In this document: positions 40,228-52,905 of the stretch, piece after piece
How the letters are laid out: each line of letters begins with the position of its first letter
Position numbering within the stretch: position 1 is the stretch's first letter
NCBI GenBank assembly: GCA_003223935.1
Contig: QHXQ01000042.1
Coordinates: 1 to 64,000, forward strand
Origin: Acidobacteriota bacterium
Lineage (GTDB): Bacteria; Acidobacteriota; Blastocatellia; Pyrinomonadales; Pyrinomonadaceae
DNA: 64,000 nucleotides
Reading direction: 5' to 3'
The notes under the pieces: model-generated
The model's database searches: none
Seen by the model: the letters and a program-made list of their open reading frames with translations, nothing else
Told to the model about the DNA's origin: nothing
Position numbers and translations under genes: made by a program

Positions 40228-40301
40228 GGCGGCTAGAGGGATTTGAACCCTCGATCTCCTGATCCACAGTCAGGCGCTTTAACCACTAAGCTATAGCCGC
40301 C
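40228..40301 (-). tRNA. tRNA-His (GTG)
   Basis: Cloverleaf on the minus strand: acceptor GCGGCTA/TAGCCGC, anticodon GTG in ACTGTGG, T-loop GGTTCAAATCC. The extra G-1 opposite C73, the hallmark of tRNA-His, is encoded (40301 and 40228). CCA is not encoded. Confidence 0.95.
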
Positions 40302-40371
40302 ATAAGTTGTCGTAACCGTCACATCATATCGAAGCCGGTCACGCGCTGACAAGCGCATCCAACACACGAAA

Positions 40372-40444
40372 TGCCCCCGGCAAGACTCGAACTTGCGACC
40401 CTCTGCTTAGAAGGCAGATGCTCTATCCACTGAGCTACGGGAGC
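40372..40444 (-). tRNA. tRNA-Arg (TCT)
   Basis: Minus strand cloverleaf of 73 nt: acceptor GCTCCCG/CGGGGGC with one G:T pair, anticodon loop CTTCTAA (TCT, reads AGA), T-loop GTTCGAGTC. CCA is not encoded. It probably shares a transcript with tRNA-His 70 bp downstream. Confidence 0.95.
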
Positions 40445-40520
40445 ATGTCACCGAACCGCGAGGGATGTTAGCATGCGTTTAGTTATTAGCGTCAACCAGA
40501 GGCGGAGCGGTGAGCTGGCT

Positions 40521-41096
40521 ATGATGAATGAAGAGACGGAGAACCCTTGGCGCACATTGAGTTCGAGCGCGGTTTACGATAATCCTTGGATCGATGTGCG
40601 CGAAGATCAGGTCATCCGACCGGATGGTGCGCCGGGCATCTATGGCGTCGTCCATTTCAAGCACGTCGCTATCGGCGTGTTGCCGGTTGAACGTGATGAT
40701 GTCTATCTGGTTGGGCAGTATCGCTATACGCTCGGACGTTACTCGTGGGAGATTCCCGAAGGTGGTTGTGCGGAGGGCGAAGACCATTTGAGCGCGGCTC
40801 AACGAGAGCTAGCCGAAGAGACCGGCCTGCGTGCCGCACATTGGCAGAGGATGGGCGAAGCGCATCTCTCAAACTCCGTCTCGGACGAACTGGCGATCTG
40901 GTTTCTCGCCACCGGCCTCACGCAAGGCGCGCATCAGCCGGAGGGCACAGAACGCTTGCGCGTGCGGCGTGTACCGGTGGTTGAGGCTTTGCATATGGCG
41001 CTAAATGGCGAGATAACCGATGCGATCAGTCTGTTGGCGTTGATGCAGTATCAACTTCAGCGTGAGCGTTTCGCCAATGAGTCGAGGTTGGCTTGA
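40521..41096 (+). CDS. Nudix hydrolase (ADP-ribose pyrophosphatase-like)
   Basis: About 191 aa from the ATG pair at 40521/40524. The complete Nudix box is GGCAEGE, 7 residues, then RELAEETGL. YDNPWIDVREDQVIRPDG upstream, together with VYLVGQYRYTLGRYSWEIPEGG, is typical of ADP-ribose/nucleoside-diphosphate-sugar pyrophosphatases. It hydrolyses NDP-X substrates with Mg2+ in the cytoplasm. The frame runs back to an ATG at 40473 that lies close to tRNA-Arg and is less likely. Confidence 0.88.
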   Translation: MMNEETENPWRTLSSSAVYDNPWIDVREDQVIRPDGAPGIYGVVHFKHVAIGVLPVERDDVYLVGQYRYTLGRYSWEIPEGGCAEGEDHLSAAQRELAEETGLRAAHWQRMGEAHLSNSVSDELAIWFLATGLTQGAHQPEGTERLRVRRVPVVEALHMALNGEITDAISLLALMQYQLQRERFANESRLA

Positions 41097-41121
41097 AGAG
41101 AACGATTGTCTATGCGCGTGA

Positions 41122-41169
41122 GCGGAAGGAAAAGGCTCAAGTCCTTCCGCAGAAGGTCTTGAGCCTTTT
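41122..41169. terminator. Terminator with a competing upstream hairpin
   Basis: A 12-bp stem (41130-41141 with 41158-41169) ending in TTTTG forms a terminator between convergent genes. A second 9-bp stem, GCGGAAGGA (41122-41130) with TCCTTCCGC (41142-41150), would enclose the left arm of the first, so the two cannot form fully together. Confidence 0.7.
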
Positions 41170-41204
41170 GTTTCTCGTCAGTCCCTGCGCCGAGACGCGG
41201 CAGC

Positions 41205-41459
41205 TTAAGCGGCAGCGTAACGGCCGCCCTCGACCGGTTCGGCATAGACGCGACGACCGTTCAGTGCGTCGTCAATTATCTCGCGCACGGCGGCCACGTC
41301 TGGGTTCACGTCCATGCGTTCGCAGGCGCGCAGATGACGCAGGATGCCCTCGGTGGCGATGTCCAGCGAGGGGCCGGTCAGTTTCGAGTAGCGGCGCGCT
41401 TGAATATGGTCAATTGCTTTCAACCGCTCTTCGAGCGGCAATGTCAGGTTGAAGTTCAC
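41205..41459 (-). CDS. Small hypothetical protein
   Basis: 84 aa from GTG 41459 with AAGGAG about 12 bp upstream. It is mostly helical with a balanced charge (PLEERLKAIDHIQARRYSKL, TEGILRHLRACERM, AAVREIIDDALNGRRVY). No family is recognised. The good ribosome binding site and the terminator just after it support a real gene. It may be a small regulatory or adaptor protein; this is not shown by the sequence. Confidence 0.5.
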   Translation of the reverse strand: MNFNLTLPLEERLKAIDHIQARRYSKLTGPSLDIATEGILRHLRACERMDVNPDVAAVREIIDDALNGRRVYAEPVEGGRYAAA

Positions 41460-41859
41460 TTTCTACAGTCGCTCCTTTTATGTTGGCGGCCCGCCCGAAT
41501 TAGTTGGCGGCGCTCAAATCATTTAATTGCTTACTTTAGATGCTCGCGGCGCGCGTTTGGATGCGTTTCGATTGCATTCTCCAACACTTTCGCGCATACG
41601 AACACACGCTAGAGGCCCTCTCTGGCTACCCCGGATAAGAATTGGCGGGCTAACAGAAAAAGGCATTCTAGTTGAATCCGCCAAAAATTGCCAGAAATAT
41701 TTTTTCGTTGTCAGGTGGGATGAGATCGCAACTCAGAAAGAAGCGGCGGGCGCTAAAAATGCAACACCGCATGCGAGTCAGGCGCGGAAAGTATATGCGC
41801 CAACTCGCAGGCGGCGCGCGCGGTCGGTTGCAATCGGATGGTGGCGAACTTAAGGGCGA
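41460..41859. other. Intergenic region without visible gene
   Basis: About 400 bp between two minus-strand genes. The short frames here lack coding character. An AT-rich stretch (41680-41710) may hold part of the promoter for the 41205 gene. Nothing else is recognised. Confidence 0.45.
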
Positions 41860-42168
41860 TTACTTCTTCGGTACGACAGTATCTTTCATCGCTTTACTAA
41901 CACGGAACTTCAACGTGGTCTTGGCCGGAATCTGGATGGTCTCGCCGGTCTGCGGGTTGCGCCCTTCACGCGCTTTGCGCTCCGACAGTACGAGTTTGCC
42001 GAATCCGGGCAGCACGAATTCGCCGTTGCCCTTGACTTCATTGCTGGCCAGATTGGCCAACTCATCGAACAGTTCTCTCACTTGAGAGCGTTTCATGCCG
42101 AACTTGTCGGCGAAATGGTTGAGCACTTCGGACTGCGTCATGCGTTTCTTGCCTGCTTTGGTCGCCAT
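41860..42168 (-). CDS. HU family DNA-binding protein
   Basis: 102 aa. The HU/IHF fold is complete: TQSEVLNHFADKFGMKRSQV helices, GEFVLPGFGKLVLSERKAREGRNP across the DNA-binding beta arm with its conserved RNPQTGE, and the last helix TLKFRVSKAMKDTV. A short basic N-terminal extension (MATKAGKKR) precedes it. It binds and bends DNA as a dimer in the nucleoid. AGGAGG lies 15 bp upstream of the ATG, farther than usual. Confidence 0.92.
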   Translation of the reverse strand: MATKAGKKRMTQSEVLNHFADKFGMKRSQVRELFDELANLASNEVKGNGEFVLPGFGKLVLSERKAREGRNPQTGETIQIPAKTTLKFRVSKAMKDTVVPKK

Positions 42169-42345
42169 TTCGAAGTGTGACTACCTCCTGCGCACTGGGA
42201 AGATTGGGAAAAACTTGCGTCAGCACATATATCACACCCAAGCCCTTCGCGTCTGCAAAAAAAGCCGATTTTCAACCCTTTTGCGCGAAAAATTTGGGCT
42301 TTCGGTTGTCTATGATTGCCCTCAAAAACTCATGTGCACGAGCAA

Positions 42346-42419
<74 letters not shown>

Positions 42420-46389: not shown

Positions 46390-47222
46390 GCGTGCATCCT
46401 AACCGTCAGGTGGAGCGGCACGCAAGAAGAGCGCTGGGGAAAACCTGAGCGCGCAGACGGCGAAGAGACACGCGAAAGACGCGAGCAATGTCCTGTGCGC
46501 TCATGGTGCAAAATTCTGGAACTCGCGCGGGGTCGTTCCAGAATAATATCCAGCCTGCTCATCAGTCGAGAAACAAAATCCGTTTCTTCTATAAGTTAAA
46601 CCAGTAAAATTATGATTGACACTGACAAACGCGGTGGGTTATAGTTTTAATTGTCGGCGGGCAGTGGCACCGCCTCCTACTGAGTGCAAGCAGACCGACA
46701 CACTCCAGCCCCCGAACATGGTCATGCTTGATGAGCGATAAACCGCAGACACGTTCCGAAGGCCACATTCTTTGACACTCAACCGAGAAAGGCACACTCC
46801 GCGTGAGCGGAGGTCGCAAAGCCGACGGGAGTCAAAAAGCGCGCTGCAAGGACGCGACCGACTCGGCCGGGTTGCCGAAGGGGAGTCCCATGGCGCGCCG
46901 AACGCCGCAAGCCGGTTCGACTCAAACGCCATGACCCGCCTTCCATTCTCGTTCACCGAACTGATCGGCGCGCACAGCAACTTCGATTGCTAACCAGTTC
47001 GCACGCTCTCCCTCAATCAACGCCAAACGGTTCGTCCGTGTGTCAGCCAAAGCAAGCGTGAGACTACCAGATTGAGCGCCGTGACAAGATGATGAACCAC
47101 CTTCCAGTTTGCCACCCACACAACGCACGCAGCCCGCGCTTACGCGCACGCCGCATACGAGCGCGCCTGCGCCGCACCAGCCGCCGCACGCAGCCAACAG
47201 AGCGCAAGGAACAGATAAACGC
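46390..47222 (+). promoter_or_regulatory. Long untranslated leader region of the pil operon
   Basis: About 830 bp without a convincing gene before pilM. An AT-rich stretch at 46560-46640 is a good place for the promoter. A riboswitch-like element occupies about 46782-46882. The remaining 340 bp up to pilM (AAGGAA site, ATG 47223) would hold the expression platform; I could not identify an unambiguous terminator in it. Confidence 0.6.
46782..46882 (+). promoter_or_regulatory. Candidate cyclic-di-GMP-I (GEMM-I) riboswitch
   Basis: The GEMM-I core is recognisable in order: AAGGCACAC, a hairpin CTCCGC-GTGA-GCGGAG with a GNRA tetraloop, GTCGCAAAGCC (the strongly conserved CGCAAAGCC), CGGGAGTC with a matching GACTC farther on (second stem), and the 3' GGCCGGGTTGCCGAAG block. 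The GNRA loop is where the aptamer expects it. The base equivalent to G20 of the V. cholerae Vc2 aptamer appears to be G, favouring c-di-GMP over cAMP-GMP. It precedes pilMNOPQ, a known GEMM-I regulon type in Geobacter. Confidence 0.85.
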
Positions 47223-48284
47223 ATGTTCAGCAAAAAATCTGCCAAGAAAAATCTGGTCGGTTTAGACATCGGTTCAAGTTCGATCAAAGCGGTCGAGTTG
47301 TCGGGCAAGCCCGGCAATCTCGTCCTGCTGCACCTCGGCCATGAAGCTTTGCAACCCGACTCGGTCGTTGACGGCCAGATCATGGAGTTGAACTCCGTCT
47401 CCGGCACCATTGCCAGCGTCTTCAGCACGCATCAGATCAAAACTGAGCGCGTCGCCGCCGGCGTGAGCGGTAGTTCGGTCATCGTCAAGAACATTCTCGT
47501 GCCGCCGATGAGCGACGAGGAGCTTGAAGAGTCAATTGACTGGCACGCCGAAGAGCATATCCCGTTCGAGATCGCGGACGTAAGTCTCGACTATCAAGTT
47601 GTCGGGCGTAGCGCCGAATCGCTCCAAGTGCTGCTCGCCGCCTGCAAGCGCGATTTCGTCGCCAACATCAAGCAAGCGATCCAGCTCGCGGGCCGGCAAC
47701 CGGCCGTGATTGACGTTGATGCGTTCGCCCTCCAGAACTGCTACGAGATCAACTACGAGCCGCAGGCCGACGACGTGGTGGCGCTCCTCAACATCGGCGC
47801 GGCCACGATGAACATCAACATCCTGCAAGGTGTGCGCAGCGTCTTCACGCGCGATATGTCGCTCGGCGGCAACCAATACACCGCGCTCTTGCAGAAAGAG
47901 TTGGGTTTGACGTTCGAGCAGGCCGAAGCGGTCAAGCGCGGCGCGCCGCTCCCCGAAGGCGCAGCGCAGAAAGAGATCGGGCCGGTGCTCGAAACAGTCT
48001 CCGACATCCTCGCGCTCGAAATTCAAAAGACCTTCGACTTCTATCGCGCGACCTCAGACGACGGCCAAGCGGTGGTGCGGAAGATTCTGTTGTCGGGTGG
48101 TTGCTCGAAGTTGCCGGGGTTGGCCGCCTATCTGGCGAGCCGGTTCGAAATGAGCGTCGAGCTATTCGACCCGTTCCGCAAGATTAAGGTTGATCCGCGC
48201 CGGTTCGATATTGATTACCTGCGCGAAGTGACGCCGGAGATGGCCGTGGCTGTCGGCCTCGCCTTGAGAGGAGTGGATGCGTAA
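47223..48284 (+). CDS. pilM: Type IV pilus assembly protein PilM
   Basis: 353 aa from ATG 47223 (MFSKKSAKKN); the frame upstream is Pro/His/Arg-rich non-family sequence. Actin-like fold: LVGLDIGSSSIKAVELSG (phosphate 1), INIGAATMNINILQ (phosphate 2 region) and KILLSGGCSKLPGLAAYL (adenosine motif). The PilM-specific MSDEELEESIDWHAEEHIPFEI is present. It forms a cytoplasmic ring that binds the N-terminus of PilN and couples the motors to the inner-membrane alignment complex. It is the first gene of the operon and its stop abuts the pilN ATG. Confidence 0.96.
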   Translation: MFSKKSAKKNLVGLDIGSSSIKAVELSGKPGNLVLLHLGHEALQPDSVVDGQIMELNSVSGTIASVFSTHQIKTERVAAGVSGSSVIVKNILVPPMSDEELEESIDWHAEEHIPFEIADVSLDYQVVGRSAESLQVLLAACKRDFVANIKQAIQLAGRQPAVIDVDAFALQNCYEINYEPQADDVVALLNIGAATMNINILQGVRSVFTRDMSLGGNQYTALLQKELGLTFEQAEAVKRGAPLPEGAAQKEIGPVLETVSDILALEIQKTFDFYRATSDDGQAVVRKILLSGGCSKLPGLAAYLASRFEMSVELFDPFRKIKVDPRRFDIDYLREVTPEMAVAVGLALRGVDA

Positions 48285-48983
48285 ATGATCAAAGTCAACC
48301 TCTTGGATTCAGCGACCGAAGGGCCGAGCAGTTTCGCTGCGGTCGAGGCGCGCGTCGCCACGCCGCGTGCGCAAGGCCGCTTGATGTTGCTCGCCGTCGT
48401 CGCGCTCGCCTTGTTGGCGATGGGCTTCGACTGGCAGACCGCGCGTTCGGCGCGCGCAGAAGCGCAGGCGCAGCTTGAGCAGCAACAGCGCATCGCTGCG
48501 CAGATGGAAGTGGTCAAACGCGAGCAGGCCGATCTAGAGAAGAAGACGCAGGAGGTGCAAGCGCGCATCGAGGCGATCAAACACCTGCGCGACTCGCAGC
48601 AGGGGCCGGTCGCAGTGCTCACGGCGATCAACGACCGCCTGCCGAAGCTCGAAAACTTCCGGCTCTCCACCATCGAACAAAAGGGTAGCGACCTGACCAT
48701 CAGCGGCGACTCGCCAAACGAAGACGCCGTGACGCAGTTCGGACGCAGTCTTGAATTCTCTTCGGGCCTGTTCACGAACCTCAGCATCGAGATCAAGCGC
48801 GACATCCTCAAAGCGCCCGAAGGCGTACCCGTCCCCGTCGAAGATAAGGATGCGCCGAAGCCGCAGACCGTGACCTTCACGATCAAGTGCAAGTACGCGC
48901 CGGCCGCACCGCCGTCGCAGCCCGCGCCCGCCAATAACAAGCCGGCCGCGCCGCCCGCCAATCAGGTCGCGCAGAACAATTAG
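48285..48983 (+). CDS. pilN: Type IV pilus assembly protein PilN
   Basis: 232 aa, starting directly after the pilM stop. The N-terminal MIKVNLLDS is the PilM-binding motif. A membrane helix follows at about 34-50 (LMLLAVVALALLAMGFDW), then a coiled coil (QAQLEQQQRIAAQMEVVKRE) and a ferredoxin-like periplasmic domain (FRLSTIEQKGSDLTISGDS). The tail is Pro/Ala-rich. It pairs with PilO in the inner-membrane alignment complex of the pilus machine. Confidence 0.93.
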   Translation: MIKVNLLDSATEGPSSFAAVEARVATPRAQGRLMLLAVVALALLAMGFDWQTARSARAEAQAQLEQQQRIAAQMEVVKREQADLEKKTQEVQARIEAIKHLRDSQQGPVAVLTAINDRLPKLENFRLSTIEQKGSDLTISGDSPNEDAVTQFGRSLEFSSGLFTNLSIEIKRDILKAPEGVPVPVEDKDAPKPQTVTFTIKCKYAPAAPPSQPAPANNKPAAPPANQVAQNN

Positions 48984-50413: not shown

Positions 50414-50736
50414 AAGTTCTTCGGCGCGTCCTTAGCAGCGCACCCGCGTGGAAGCCTGAGCCACGCACGCGCCTGCTGATGATGCGCCGAATCTCGACCC
50501 CCTCGTGGACGCACCCGGCAAGCTTCAAAGACAACCAAGCGCGTCCGATTAAATGCGCGACTTCGTGAGCGCGCACCCGCTTTTTGGCAAACCGTAAACT
50601 GACCCCGGTCTGTGGGGCCGCGTTGTGCGGCGCGCGCTTGAGTAGTCTTGGCACCCGACGCTGGACTCATACGAGCGTTAGCGCGTGGCGGCCCTTACAG
50701 TTCCCGGTGTCATTCCATTTGCAAAAGGAAAGAAAC
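50414..50736 (+). other. 323-bp gap inside the pil operon
   Basis: The pilP-pilQ gap is unusually long for an operon whose other gaps are 0-63 bp. A frame runs back from pilQ to 50584, but its residues do not look like a signal peptide and the AAAGGAA site favours ATG 50737. I see no clear gene or terminator; a second promoter for pilQ is possible. Confidence 0.4.
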
Positions 50737-52905
50737 ATGCTGAACCCGTTCCGAACGCTCACCGTCACGCTACGTCGAGGCACGCTCGTCCTCGCGCTCG
50801 CGTGTCTATTCGCTACCTTTGCAGAGGCGCGCGCCGCCTCGCTCGTGACGGGCGTGCGCGCGACGACTGAAGGCGGTGTCACACGCATTGCCGTCGCCGG
50901 CTCTGTGCCGCTCGCTTACGGCGTGCGCCACGCGGACGCGCATACGCTCATGGTCGAGTTGCCCGGCGCGGACGCGACGCACCTCGCCGCTTCTTATCAA
51001 CTTGCTTCGCCGCTCGCCTCTGTCGTCCACGTCGAGTGCGCCAACGGCGCAGACGGGCAACCGCTCGCGCGGCTCAACGTTGCGCTGCTTGCGCCCGTGC
51101 GCGAACGCGCATACTTGAGCGGCAACGAACTGGTGCTCGAACTCGCGCCTGAAGCTGGCGCGAGCGCGCCGCCCGTAGCTGTGTTGAGCGAGATGAATGC
51201 TGGTGTCGCGCAGCAACAGCCGACGCCGATGACCGCGTCGCCCGCGCAGCCGCGCAATCCAAACGCCGCGCAGGGGGATCAGGGCCGGCATTACGGCGAG
51301 TATGGTTTTATCGGCGAGCCGATCAATCTGAACGTCGTCAACGCCGACATACGCGACATCCTCAACTACATCACAGAGCAGTACGGCGTGAACTTCATCA
51401 TAGACAAATCAGTCGGCCCCGTGCCCGTCACCGTCAACGTCACAGACGTGCCGTGGAACTACGCGCTCGATGCGATCCTGCGCGCGAACCGGCTCGGCAT
51501 CGCGGTCGAAGGCAATATCCTGCGCGTGGCCACCGTCGAGACGTTGGCGCTGGAAGCGGAAGCGCAGGCGAAGATTCAAGAAGGGAAGTTGAACGCCGCG
51601 CAGCTTGTGACCGAGTTCATCCGGCTCAACTACGCGCGGGCGGTGGGCACGCTGGCGCAAGCAGCGGGCGCGACCGGCGAGTTTGCCGGTGGCGTCACCT
51701 CCCAGAGCGCTTCGAGCGCGGGCGGCGACTCAACCGGCAAGAGCGGCGATCAAGGCATCATGCCGATCATCCGGCGGCGTCTGTCACGCCGTGGCTCAGT
51801 TGAAGTTGACGGCCGCAGCAACACGCTGATCGTCACAGACGTGCGCGAGAACATTGACTCGATCCGCCAACTCGTCGCGTTGCTCGATCAGCCCGAACCG
51901 CAAGTCGAGATCGAGACGCGCATCGTCATCGCCAATCGCAACTTCAGCCGCGATATCGGCGTGCAGATCGCGGGTCTCTCGCTCAACAGTCGCGGCGGCG
52001 GCGGTTCGCTCGCCACCGTGCCGGGTTCGCCCACGCCGCCCTCCTCTACCAATTTGGGGCAACTGGCTGGCACGCGCCCCGGCGGCTTGCCGCTTGGCAT
52101 CGGCGGCCCCAACTCGGAGCCTGGTGATTCCCTCCGAGCTGCCGCCGCCAGCACCATCATTGGGCTAACCACCGGCATGATCGGCACGACTCAGATCAGC
52201 GCGCTGCTCTCGCTCGCCGAGACCAAAGGGCAAGCGAAGATCGTGGCCACGCCGCGCGTGACTGCGCTCAACAATCGCCCGGCACAGATCGAATCCGGCT
52301 CACAAATTCCGGTCGTCACGCCGCAGACCGGTGCGAACGGTGGCGGCACTGTCTTTACGACGACCTTCATCTCCGTCCCCTTGCGGCTTTCGATCACGCC
52401 GCAGATTACGGACGCGGGCACAGTCGTCTTGCGCGTCGTCGCCGAGAACAACTCGGTCAACCTCGGTCTGACCAACTCGCTCGGCACGCCCGGCATTGAT
52501 ACGCAGCGCATGCAAACCGAAGTGCTCGTGCCCGATGGCGGCACGACGGTCGTCGGCGGCGTGCTCGCAGACAACGAAGGCGAGACGCAGAACCGGACGC
52601 CCGGTCTCTCCGGCATTCCCGTGCTCGGCAACCTCTTCAAGCGCAAAGCCACGAGTCGCACGACGAACGAACTACTGTTCTTCATCACGCCGCGCATCTA
52701 CCGGCCCGACTACAACGGCCGGCCCACGTCCGGCACAGTCTCCGACCGCACGCGCTCGGTCACACTGCCGCAACCCGTGCCGCTCGGCAACCCACAGACG
52801 AACACAGGCGTGCCGACGGGAACGCAAACCTTCCCGACGACGACGACCGTGCCCGCTGCCGGCCCGACGACAACGACGCCGCCCCCGACCGGCGAGCATC
52901 CATAA
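50737..52905 (+). CDS. pilQ: Type IV pilus secretin PilQ
   Basis: 722 aa from ATG 50737 with a signal peptide (residues 1-32). An AMIN domain (about 35-140; TEGGVTRIAVAGSVPLAY) binds peptidoglycan. A secretin N0/N1 region (INLNVVNADIRDILNYITEQ, PVPVTVNVTDVPWNYALDAI) and further N domain (RGSVEVDGRSNTLIVTD) follow, then the secretin pore (GQAKIVATPRVTALNNRPAQ, VLVPDGGTTVVGGVL, PGLSGIPVLGNLFKRK) and a Pro/Thr-rich tail. It forms the outer-membrane gate through which the pilus passes. Confidence 0.96.
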   Translation: MLNPFRTLTVTLRRGTLVLALACLFATFAEARAASLVTGVRATTEGGVTRIAVAGSVPLAYGVRHADAHTLMVELPGADATHLAASYQLASPLASVVHVECANGADGQPLARLNVALLAPVRERAYLSGNELVLELAPEAGASAPPVAVLSEMNAGVAQQQPTPMTASPAQPRNPNAAQGDQGRHYGEYGFIGEPINLNVVNADIRDILNYITEQYGVNFIIDKSVGPVPVTVNVTDVPWNYALDAILRANRLGIAVEGNILRVATVETLALEAEAQAKIQEGKLNAAQLVTEFIRLNYARAVGTLAQAAGATGEFAGGVTSQSASSAGGDSTGKSGDQGIMPIIRRRLSRRGSVEVDGRSNTLIVTDVRENIDSIRQLVALLDQPEPQVEIETRIVIANRNFSRDIGVQIAGLSLNSRGGGGSLATVPGSPTPPSSTNLGQLAGTRPGGLPLGIGGPNSEPGDSLRAAAASTIIGLTTGMIGTTQISALLSLAETKGQAKIVATPRVTALNNRPAQIESGSQIPVVTPQTGANGGGTVFTTTFISVPLRLSITPQITDAGTVVLRVVAENNSVNLGLTNSLGTPGIDTQRMQTEVLVPDGGTTVVGGVLADNEGETQNRTPGLSGIPVLGNLFKRKATSRTTNELLFFITPRIYRPDYNGRPTSGTVSDRTRSVTLPQPVPLGNPQTNTGVPTGTQTFPTTTTVPAAGPTTTTPPPTGEHP

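What the first reader, a model, noticed from the sequence alone, without database searches (positions are those of the whole stretch)
46782..46882. Candidate c-di-GMP-I riboswitch in the leader of pilMNOPQ
The conserved GEMM-I pieces (GGCACAC, GNRA-capped hairpin, CGCAAAGCC, second stem, GGGTTGCCG) occur in the right order and spacing. Known GEMM-I aptamers control type IV pilus operons in Geobacter, so the context fits. The base aligned to Vc2 position 20 is G, predicting c-di-GMP rather than cAMP-GMP. A further 340 nt separate it from pilM, an unusually long expression region.
Basis: partly seen in the sequence, partly recalled or inferred. Interest (0 to 1): 0.85.

Follow-up and report, generated by a model that had tools for sequence, protein, structure and literature searches.

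The report
Pilus-operon c-di-GMP switch with leader peptide
In soil Acidobacteriota the genes that build type IV pili are often preceded by an RNA element of the c-di-GMP riboswitch family, followed by a conserved arginine-rich mini-gene without a known family, and binding of the bacterial signal c-di-GMP likely turns down translation of this leader and so, we infer, of the pilus genes.

Summary
Confirmed. Rfam's c-di-GMP-I model (RF01051) hits window 46781-46879 at 49.9 bits (cut-off 35), 343 nt before pilM. The aptamer recurs before pilM in 24 of 80 related loci; a 15-row alignment shows covariation in two of three helices. The base at the Vc2-G20 position is G in those 15 rows, so c-di-GMP is the likely ligand. 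That is a preference, not proof: the same genome has two GGDEF proteins with the cGAMP-enzyme (Hypr) signature.

The "long expression region" is partly explained. (1) The leader's strongest Shine-Dalgarno-like site abuts the aptamer, as in stand-alone c-di-GMP-I copies of this bacterial family, and can pair with the aptamer's 5' flank. (2) The last ~135 nt encode an Arg-rich small ORF under protein-level selection in relatives, ending beside or overlapping the pilM start. (3) No intrinsic terminator was found in the window. The best mechanism is translational, relayed through the leader ORFs to pilM. This is inferred; OFF is only the likelier sign, and one computed fold speaks against it.

Four of four pilM-leader aptamers found in two other families have A (cGAMP-type) at that position, and one close relative (L070) appears to as well: natural ligand-switch candidates. 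New variant of a known kind.

The parts
46616..46645 (+). predicted sigma-70 promoter: TTGACA, 18 nt, TATAGT
   Evidence: 11 of 12 consensus matches, 0.3 expected per shuffle; TTGACA at the corresponding place in all 43 leaders examined of 81, most with a GTTAAAC/AAAAT-like block just upstream, with or without the aptamer
46656..46674 (+). possible hairpin near the predicted transcript 5' end
   Evidence: single-sequence fold; hairpins near the same place in many but not all relatives; not tested for covariation
46777..46784 (+). 5' strand of proposed P1 extension (ACTC..CC), candidate anti-Shine-Dalgarno
   Evidence: best duplex with 46880-46886; over 23 leaders 174 of 5000 permutations pair as well as the real partners (which corrects one row)
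46781..46879 (+). c-di-GMP-I (GEMM-I) riboswitch aptamer; G at 46791, A at 46818, C at 46875 at the positions matched to Vc2 G20, A47, C92
   Evidence: RF01051 49.9 bits; covariation in A1; model R1 93.9 bits, window being one of its 15 rows
46880..46885 (+). Shine-Dalgarno-like GGGGAG touching the aptamer
   Evidence: -6.7 kcal/mol with the anti-SD core, strongest site from 46876 to 47215; over 24 leaders the mean peaks exactly here
46890..46934 (+). uORF1, 14 codons (MARRTPQAGSTQTP), start 10 nt after the aptamer
   Evidence: placement as in stand-alone GEMM-I genes of the family; no such peptide seen in the other leaders listed
47089..47265 (+). Arg-rich small ORF (58 codons here), overlaps the pilM start out of frame by 43 nt
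   Evidence: profile hit E=5.9e-5, window not in the profile; codon test on relatives; translation
47206..47210 (+). pilM Shine-Dalgarno AAGGA, inside the small ORF
   Evidence: sequence, -4.0 kcal/mol
47223..48284 (+). pilM
   Evidence: PF11104 E=1.1e-74
48285..48983 (+). pilN
   Evidence: PF05137
49016..49696 (+). pilO
   Evidence: PF04350
49760..50413 (+). candidate pilP by position
   Evidence: no Pfam hit; position only
50734..52905 (+). pilQ secretin
   Evidence: PF00263, PF03958

Best explanation
The window holds an aptamer of the c-di-GMP-I riboswitch family in the leader of pilMNOPQ, and c-di-GMP binding likely closes helix P1 over the Shine-Dalgarno site that touches the aptamer, which would lower translation of the leader ORFs and, through them, of pilM. 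Shown by the calls: the aptamer, its covariation and its recurrence before pilM; the Shine-Dalgarno-like site at the aptamer edge; the protein-level selection on the Arg-rich small ORF in relatives; the overlap or near-contact of that ORF with the pilM start. Inferred: that c-di-GMP is the ligand (from G at the Vc2-20 position); that P1 closure hides the site (pairing seen in sequence; ligand-dependent P1 reported for the Geobacter pilM switch in PMC9262584); that leader translation feeds pilM by termination-reinitiation or by shielding the mRNA from Rho; and that the net sign is OFF.
For: RF01051 49.9 bits, cut-off 35. In 15 aligned rows 99.7% of pair cells are standard, 6 of 20 pairs change on both sides (26 cells; 0 of 500 shuffles reach that), and slid helices fall to 22-45%. 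Model R1 (15 rows: window + 14 loci) finds the aptamer before pilM at >=76 bits in the window and 24 of 80 pilM loci, 10 of them not used to build it; 2 more are weak (L047 31.6, L059 21.1 bits). Columns 11, 38, 95 (G, A, C) are invariant in A1. Own genome: 16 GGDEF and 6 EAL matches. Anti-SD affinity over 24 leaders is best at offsets -1/0 from the aptamer end (mean -3.1 against -0.7, sd 0.58 over offsets); the window's -6.7 is the strongest in its whole leader, pilM's own site is -4.0. Of 14 stand-alone or second-in-row GEMM-I copies that I picked from the 33 because a gene starts beside them, 13 read GTGAGG, GTGGGG or GTGAAG right after the aptamer, and all have ATG 9-15 nt after it. In most of 16 such copies the best duplex of the 5' flank covers that site. 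Small ORF: 318 synonymous of 504 single-change codons, 151.7 expected; the two other frames give 58 (128 expected) and 57 (133 expected) (21 of 40 rows fall in the identity range used).
Against: No ligand or expression data. A free fold of 46765-46900 prefers a non-aptamer structure (-53.7 against -43.9 kcal/mol with the aptamer core enforced). In the enforced fold 46880-46882 pair downstream, not with the 5' flank, and 46883-46886 are predicted unpaired (0.87-1.0), whereas 46885-46888 are paired in the free ensemble: taken alone this leans to ON. Only 10 of 24 leaders have an SD-like site at the aptamer edge that stands out from the rest of their own leader. uORF1 is not conserved as a peptide, and an N-terminal extension reaching the aptamer in three relatives gave no clear coding signal. 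P1 permutation support is modest (174 of 5000; related rows) and absent for the stand-alone set (own -7.83, mismatched -7.59, 1504 of 5000). The small ORF also exists before pilM where the aptamer is missing, so it is not specific to the switch. The genome's two Hypr-signature GGDEF proteins leave cGAMP possible.
Confidence: 0.4

Rival explanations
1. The aptamer is a c-di-GMP-I riboswitch that works by transcription: without leader translation, Rho loads on the C-rich leader and ends transcription before pilM, and ligand binding sets access.
For: C exceeds G in the stretch between aptamer and small ORF in 27 of 27 aptamer-bearing leaders; no intrinsic terminator after the aptamer in the window; riboswitch and Rho coupling is cited in PMC11218506 (passages).
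Against: The window leader is only in the top 9% of its own 64 kb for C over G; leaders are not consistently unstructured (z above 0 in 10 of 27). No test used here can show Rho action.
Confidence: 0.2
2. It is an ON switch like the Geobacter metallireducens pilM riboswitch: ligand binding promotes expression.
For: The pilM switch of Geobacter is ON (PMC9262584, passages) and deletion of gacA lowered pilMNOP there (PMC6456294, passages). With the aptamer core enforced, part of the SD-like site (46883-46886) is predicted unpaired.
Against: The Geobacter switch uses a terminator; none was found after the aptamer in the window. Here the SD-like site lies where P1 closure would hide it.
Confidence: 0.22
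3. The ligand is 3',3'-cGAMP or both dinucleotides, despite G at the Vc2-20 position.
For: Two GGDEF proteins with serine in the GHxxG-S place in the same genome; the base is a selectivity factor, not a hard filter (PMC9262584).
Against: G at that place in all 15 rows of A1, A in four of four pilM-leader aptamers of the other two families.
Confidence: 0.12
4. The aptamer is a decaying relic without function in this genome.
For: It is absent from several sister loci: 5 changes of state on the PilM tree with 27 bearing and 24 lacking rows; weak copies in L047 and L059.
Against: The window copy keeps the core positions and its standard pairs.
Confidence: 0.04

Closest known systems
c-di-GMP-I (GEMM-I) riboswitch, RF01051
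   Same: Full-length model match, core bases, three helices, upstream of a pilus operon.
   Different: Leader with SD-like site at the aptamer edge, then a conserved Arg-rich small ORF placed against pilM; no terminator found in the window.
Geobacter pilM cGAMP riboswitch (GEMM-Ib)
   Same: GEMM-I fold in the leader of the same operon.
   Different: The Geobacter copy senses cGAMP and is an ON switch by a terminator (PMC9262584, PMC6456294; passages read). Here the base matched to Vc2-20 is G.
M. tuberculosis ppe2 B12 riboswitch with uORF (PMC11260477; abstract, outline and passages read)
   Same: Riboswitch, then a leader ORF overlapping or touching the gene's start; termination-reinitiation was shown there.
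   Different: Other ligand, other aptamer, other organism; here coupling is only inferred.
Bacillus thuringiensis Bc1 c-di-GMP switch with long expression platform (PMC11218506; passages read)
   Same: GEMM-I with a long leader.
   Different: Bc1 has two intrinsic terminators; no small ORF is mentioned in the passages read (the term 'small ORF' has 0 occurrences).
Stand-alone or second-in-row GEMM-I copies of the same family (before CAP-domain and beta-helix proteins among others)
   Same: SD-like site touching the aptamer, 5' flank that can pair with it.
   Different: Their own gene starts 9-15 nt after the aptamer (14 copies) instead of 246-343 nt (27 pilM leaders).

Membership tests
c-di-GMP-I riboswitch (RF01051) | covariance-model score above the curated cut-off | tested here: met
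   49.9 bits, cut-off 35
c-di-GMP-I riboswitch (RF01051) | paired helices kept by compensatory change in homologs | tested here: met
   6 of 20 pairs change on both sides, in two of three helices; the 2-pair helix never varies
c-di-GMP-I riboswitch (RF01051) | ligand-contact bases (Vc2 G20, A47, C92; numbering partly recalled) | tested here: met
   G46791, A46818, C46875; invariant in A1
c-di-GMP-I riboswitch (RF01051) | binds c-di-GMP | not testable with these tools
   needs in-line probing
cGAMP-type GEMM-Ib | A at the Vc2-20 position (recalled as its mark) | tested here: not met
   G in the window; A in G040, G063, G085, G086 pilM leaders
c-di-GMP-I-GGC (RF03167) | score above its cut-off of 59 | tested here: not met
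   51.5 bits
riboswitch-controlled translated leader (as ppe2) | ORF between aptamer and gene under protein-level selection, touching the gene start | tested here: met
   (relatives)
riboswitch-controlled translated leader (as ppe2) | gene expression depends on leader translation | not testable with these tools
   needs reporters
terminator-type GEMM-I (as Geobacter pilM) | intrinsic terminator after the aptamer | tested here: not met
   none on the + strand after the aptamer in the window; 8 of 27 leaders show a hairpin with T-rich tail that passes a loose scan, some inside the aptamer

The most novel reading that the evidence does not exclude
The pilM leader of Blastocatellia carries one ancestral GEMM-I riboswitch that changed its signal during evolution: cGAMP (A20) in two families, c-di-GMP (G20) in Pyrinomonadaceae, with a possible fresh reversal in one close relative of the window (L070), and in Pyrinomonadaceae it works through a leader-encoded Arg-rich micropeptide whose translation relays the signal to pilus assembly.
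Probability: 0.25. Interest if true: 0.75.

Novelty: new variant of a known kind. Interest (0 to 1): 0.52.

Why it matters
It extends RNA-based second-messenger control of type IV pili from Geobacter to soil Acidobacteriota. It places c-di-GMP-type and cGAMP-type aptamers before the same operon in related families, so one-base ligand switching can be tested in natural homologs. It also adds a conserved small ORF with no Pfam or NCBIfam family. Pyrinomonas methylaliphatogenes K22 (locus L064; a cultured strain, as I recall) carries both the aptamer (93.7 bits) and the small ORF, so the model is testable.

Tried and rejected
Second aptamer inside the 343-nt leader: none. Intrinsic terminator: none after the aptamer on the + strand in the window; one search lists one site inside the promoter region and one on the other strand, against 1.5 per shuffle. 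Long-range pairing of the aptamer 3' strand with the leader: no better than shuffles in the window (z 0.6) and in most relatives (below -1.6 only in L071, z -3.5). Unusual leader structure: the window folds worse than shuffles, others mixed, so no argument from stability. A longer leader protein starting at the aptamer in L045/L050/L067: open frame real, coding test inconclusive. A single-sequence protein search with one small ORF found nothing; the 10-row profile found 36 at E <= 1, 33 at E <= 1e-3. In an open-licence library, one search lists no paper that holds all of 'c-di-GMP riboswitch', 'pilM' and 'Acidobacteria'; searches listed none whose title or abstract start describes this element. 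Most of those papers were seen as listings only.

Count notes. In one search I pasted coordinates by hand, left out the lowest-scoring GEMM hits, and included one placeholder (G006) that must be ignored; 27 of 147 genomes is therefore a minimum. In the first tree L042 and L068 were labelled as lacking the aptamer though their contigs end too close to pilM; one search treats them as unknown. The tree used 54 of the 82 PilM rows held then. In one search, 24 of 27 leaders were used (L047, L059, L036 dropped), 23 of 27 (L072 also dropped). In one search one row (L070) was cut at a wrong place because it lacks GGCACAC; one search repeats the test with that row mended (174 of 5000) and without it (112 of 5000), against 92 of 5000. 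Early GGDEF motif scans were too strict and were replaced.

Full report
Observation. Three tRNAs at 40228-42419 are the only other Rfam matches at the gathering cut-off in the window. The operon is pilM, pilN, pilO, a protein without a Pfam hit in the pilP place, the pilQ secretin and a Roadblock protein. The window's genome is a 5.27 Mb, 128-contig assembly; where the record titles of its PilM relatives name a family, it is mostly Pyrinomonadaceae (Acidobacteriota).

Homologs. I fetched the 80 best PilM loci in genome contigs (434 of 463 matched stretches were relatives). Of 20 scanned with Rfam, 14 had a c-di-GMP-I-clan aptamer above cut-off before pilM (13 RF01051, one RF03167). An alignment of these with the window (A1, 15 rows) has 99.7% of pair cells standard, 6 of 20 pairs with changes on both sides, and loses pairing when slid. 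A model from A1 searched over the window and all 80 loci gave 25 matches at 76 bits or more, all before pilM, 10 of them from loci outside A1; two weak ones (L047, L059) look degenerate. Over these 27 the aptamer ends 246-343 nt before pilM. On a PilM tree of 54 rows, presence or absence with 27 bearing and 24 lacking rows needs 5 changes (the outgroup and two rows with too little upstream sequence left out). In a class-wide sample, RF01051 matched in 79 of 147 genomes (72 above cut-off) and PilM in 139 of 147; at least 27 of 147 have the aptamer within 700 nt upstream of the PilM domain on the same strand, 23 in the window's family and 4 in two others (ignoring a placeholder I put in by mistake).

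Ligand. The base at the Vc2-20 position is G in the window and in all of A1. Of the ten further strong copies, nine keep G (and the alignment of L072); L070, a close relative of the window, reads AAAAGCACAC where its sister L034 reads AAAGGGCACAC. Read without a gap that is A at this position; the model places a one-base gap instead. Its contig's PilM is broken into two matches, so a sequence error is possible. Four genomes of two other families (G040, family f5; G063, G085, G086, family f8) also have the aptamer before pilM, and all four have A there, the base that I recall as marking cGAMP-type GEMM-Ib. PMC9262584 (passages) says this base steers selectivity without being a hard filter. The window's genome has 16 GGDEF and 6 EAL matches. 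Of the 16, 13 read GHxxG-D and two (L122, L128) GHxxG-S, one could not be read; serine in that place is the Hypr feature discussed in PMC6456294 (passages). G040 has one and G063 two such proteins among those that could be read (10 of 14 and 6 of 12). So in these three genomes Hypr-like enzymes do not track the base, and c-di-GMP is the likely, not the proven, ligand.

Leader. A TTGACA-18-TATAGT promoter lies at 46616-46645, and all 43 leaders examined (27 with the aptamer, 16 without, of 81) have a TTGACA at the corresponding place, most with GTTAAAC and AAAAT-like sequence just upstream. After the aptamer come two features. First, the strongest anti-SD match of the whole window leader touches the aptamer (GGGGAG, -6.7 kcal/mol; next best -4.0 at pilM), with ATG at 46890 opening a 14-codon uORF. 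Over 24 leaders the mean anti-SD affinity peaks at that spot, although only 10 of 24 leaders stand out one by one. I then looked at 14 of the 33 other aptamers, picked because a gene starts beside them; the genes tested encode CAP-domain or beta-helix proteins in five of seven cases. Of these 14, 13 carry GTGAGG, GTGGGG or GTGAAG at that spot, and all have ATG 9-15 nt after the aptamer. The 5' flank can pair with this site in most of 16 such copies, without a coevolution signal. In the pilM leaders the flanks pair in at least five different sequence versions and registers, with 174 of 5000 permutations as good. Ligand-dependent formation of P1 was reported for the Geobacter pilM switch (PMC9262584). 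From this I infer that ligand binding hides the site.

Second, the last part of the leader encodes a small Arg-rich ORF (consensus core SRARKARARLRR). In 40 rows its frame ends between 13 nt before and 40 nt after the reference PilM start. Among closely related pairs (21 of 40 rows) 318 of 504 single-change codons are synonymous (151.7 expected); the other two frames show fewer than expected (58 against 128; 57 against 133). Pairs are not independent and the alignment was made in the tested frame. A profile from 10 peptides finds it in 40 of 81 leaders (37 at E <= 1e-3; 10 by construction), none in L072 or the L074-L113 group; reverse-strand controls gave three hits, best 0.0021. A protein search found 36 relatives at E <= 1, seven of them named hypothetical protein of Pyrinomonadaceae; no Pfam or NCBIfam match for the 10 peptides. 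In the window the ORF runs 47089-47265 and overlaps the pilM start by 43 nt; in most relatives it stops within 10 nt before it. Its own SD is weak (-1.9). The pilM Shine-Dalgarno site lies inside it. Overlap or close contact of this kind is what termination-reinitiation needs; the M. tuberculosis ppe2 riboswitch is a worked example (PMC11260477, abstract, outline and passages).

Mechanism. No intrinsic terminator was found after the aptamer in the window, and no anti-aptamer partner. C exceeds G in all 27 leaders, but the window is only in the top 9% of its surroundings, so Rho is a rival, not a conclusion. I commit to translational control at the aptamer edge relayed through the leader ORFs, likely OFF. 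Against it: the computed free fold favours neither the aptamer nor the P1-SD pairing, and with the aptamer core enforced 46883-46886 come out unpaired, which taken alone leans to ON. Such folds ignore ligand and tertiary contacts.

Verdict. The riboswitch is real and a member of c-di-GMP-I by the features that could be tested. What is new is the leader design, and the G20 and A20 aptamers before the same operon in related families. I rate it a new variant of a known kind: about 0.95 for the aptamer, 0.40 for the full mechanism.

Noticed in passing
class sample; loci L006, L009, L011, L013, L017, L019, L020, L023: 17 contigs carry two (once three) c-di-GMP-I aptamers in a row, about 270-540 nt start to start; in the loci read, the second touches the start of a gene, for a beta-helix or CAP-domain protein where Pfam hit.
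   Followed up: partly
L001:1501-1600 (+), G000:C122:2097-2196: The window's genome has a second c-di-GMP-I aptamer (58.1 bits; RF03167 60.9 bits) 314 nt before a 250-aa open frame (206 aa from an inner Met) with no Pfam match.
   Followed up: partly
L139/L016, L136, L137, L138: pilM-leader aptamers of two other Blastocatellia families have A at the Vc2-20 position, the cGAMP-type base.
   Followed up: partly
L070:2621-2720: A close relative's pilM-leader aptamer reads A (or lacks one base) at the Vc2-20 position; its PilM frame is also broken, so an assembly error is possible.
   Followed up: partly
L122, L128 (window's genome): Two GGDEF domains with GHxxG-S, the Hypr (cGAMP cyclase) signature, in a genome whose two above-cut-off GEMM-I aptamers both have G at the Vc2-20 position.
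   Followed up: partly
46580-46616 and related pilM leaders: A GTTAAAC...AAAAT-like block sits just upstream of the pilM promoter in most leaders examined; it may be an UP element or a regulator site.
   Followed up: no
46931-46993: uORF1's TGA overlaps an ATG that opens a further 20-codon frame (ATGA stop-start overlap); probably chance, not checked in relatives.
   Followed up: no
L037 upstream of pilM: A close relative lacking the aptamer keeps a CTTTGACACT stretch, as found just before the aptamer in the window; a possible trace of loss.
   Followed up: no
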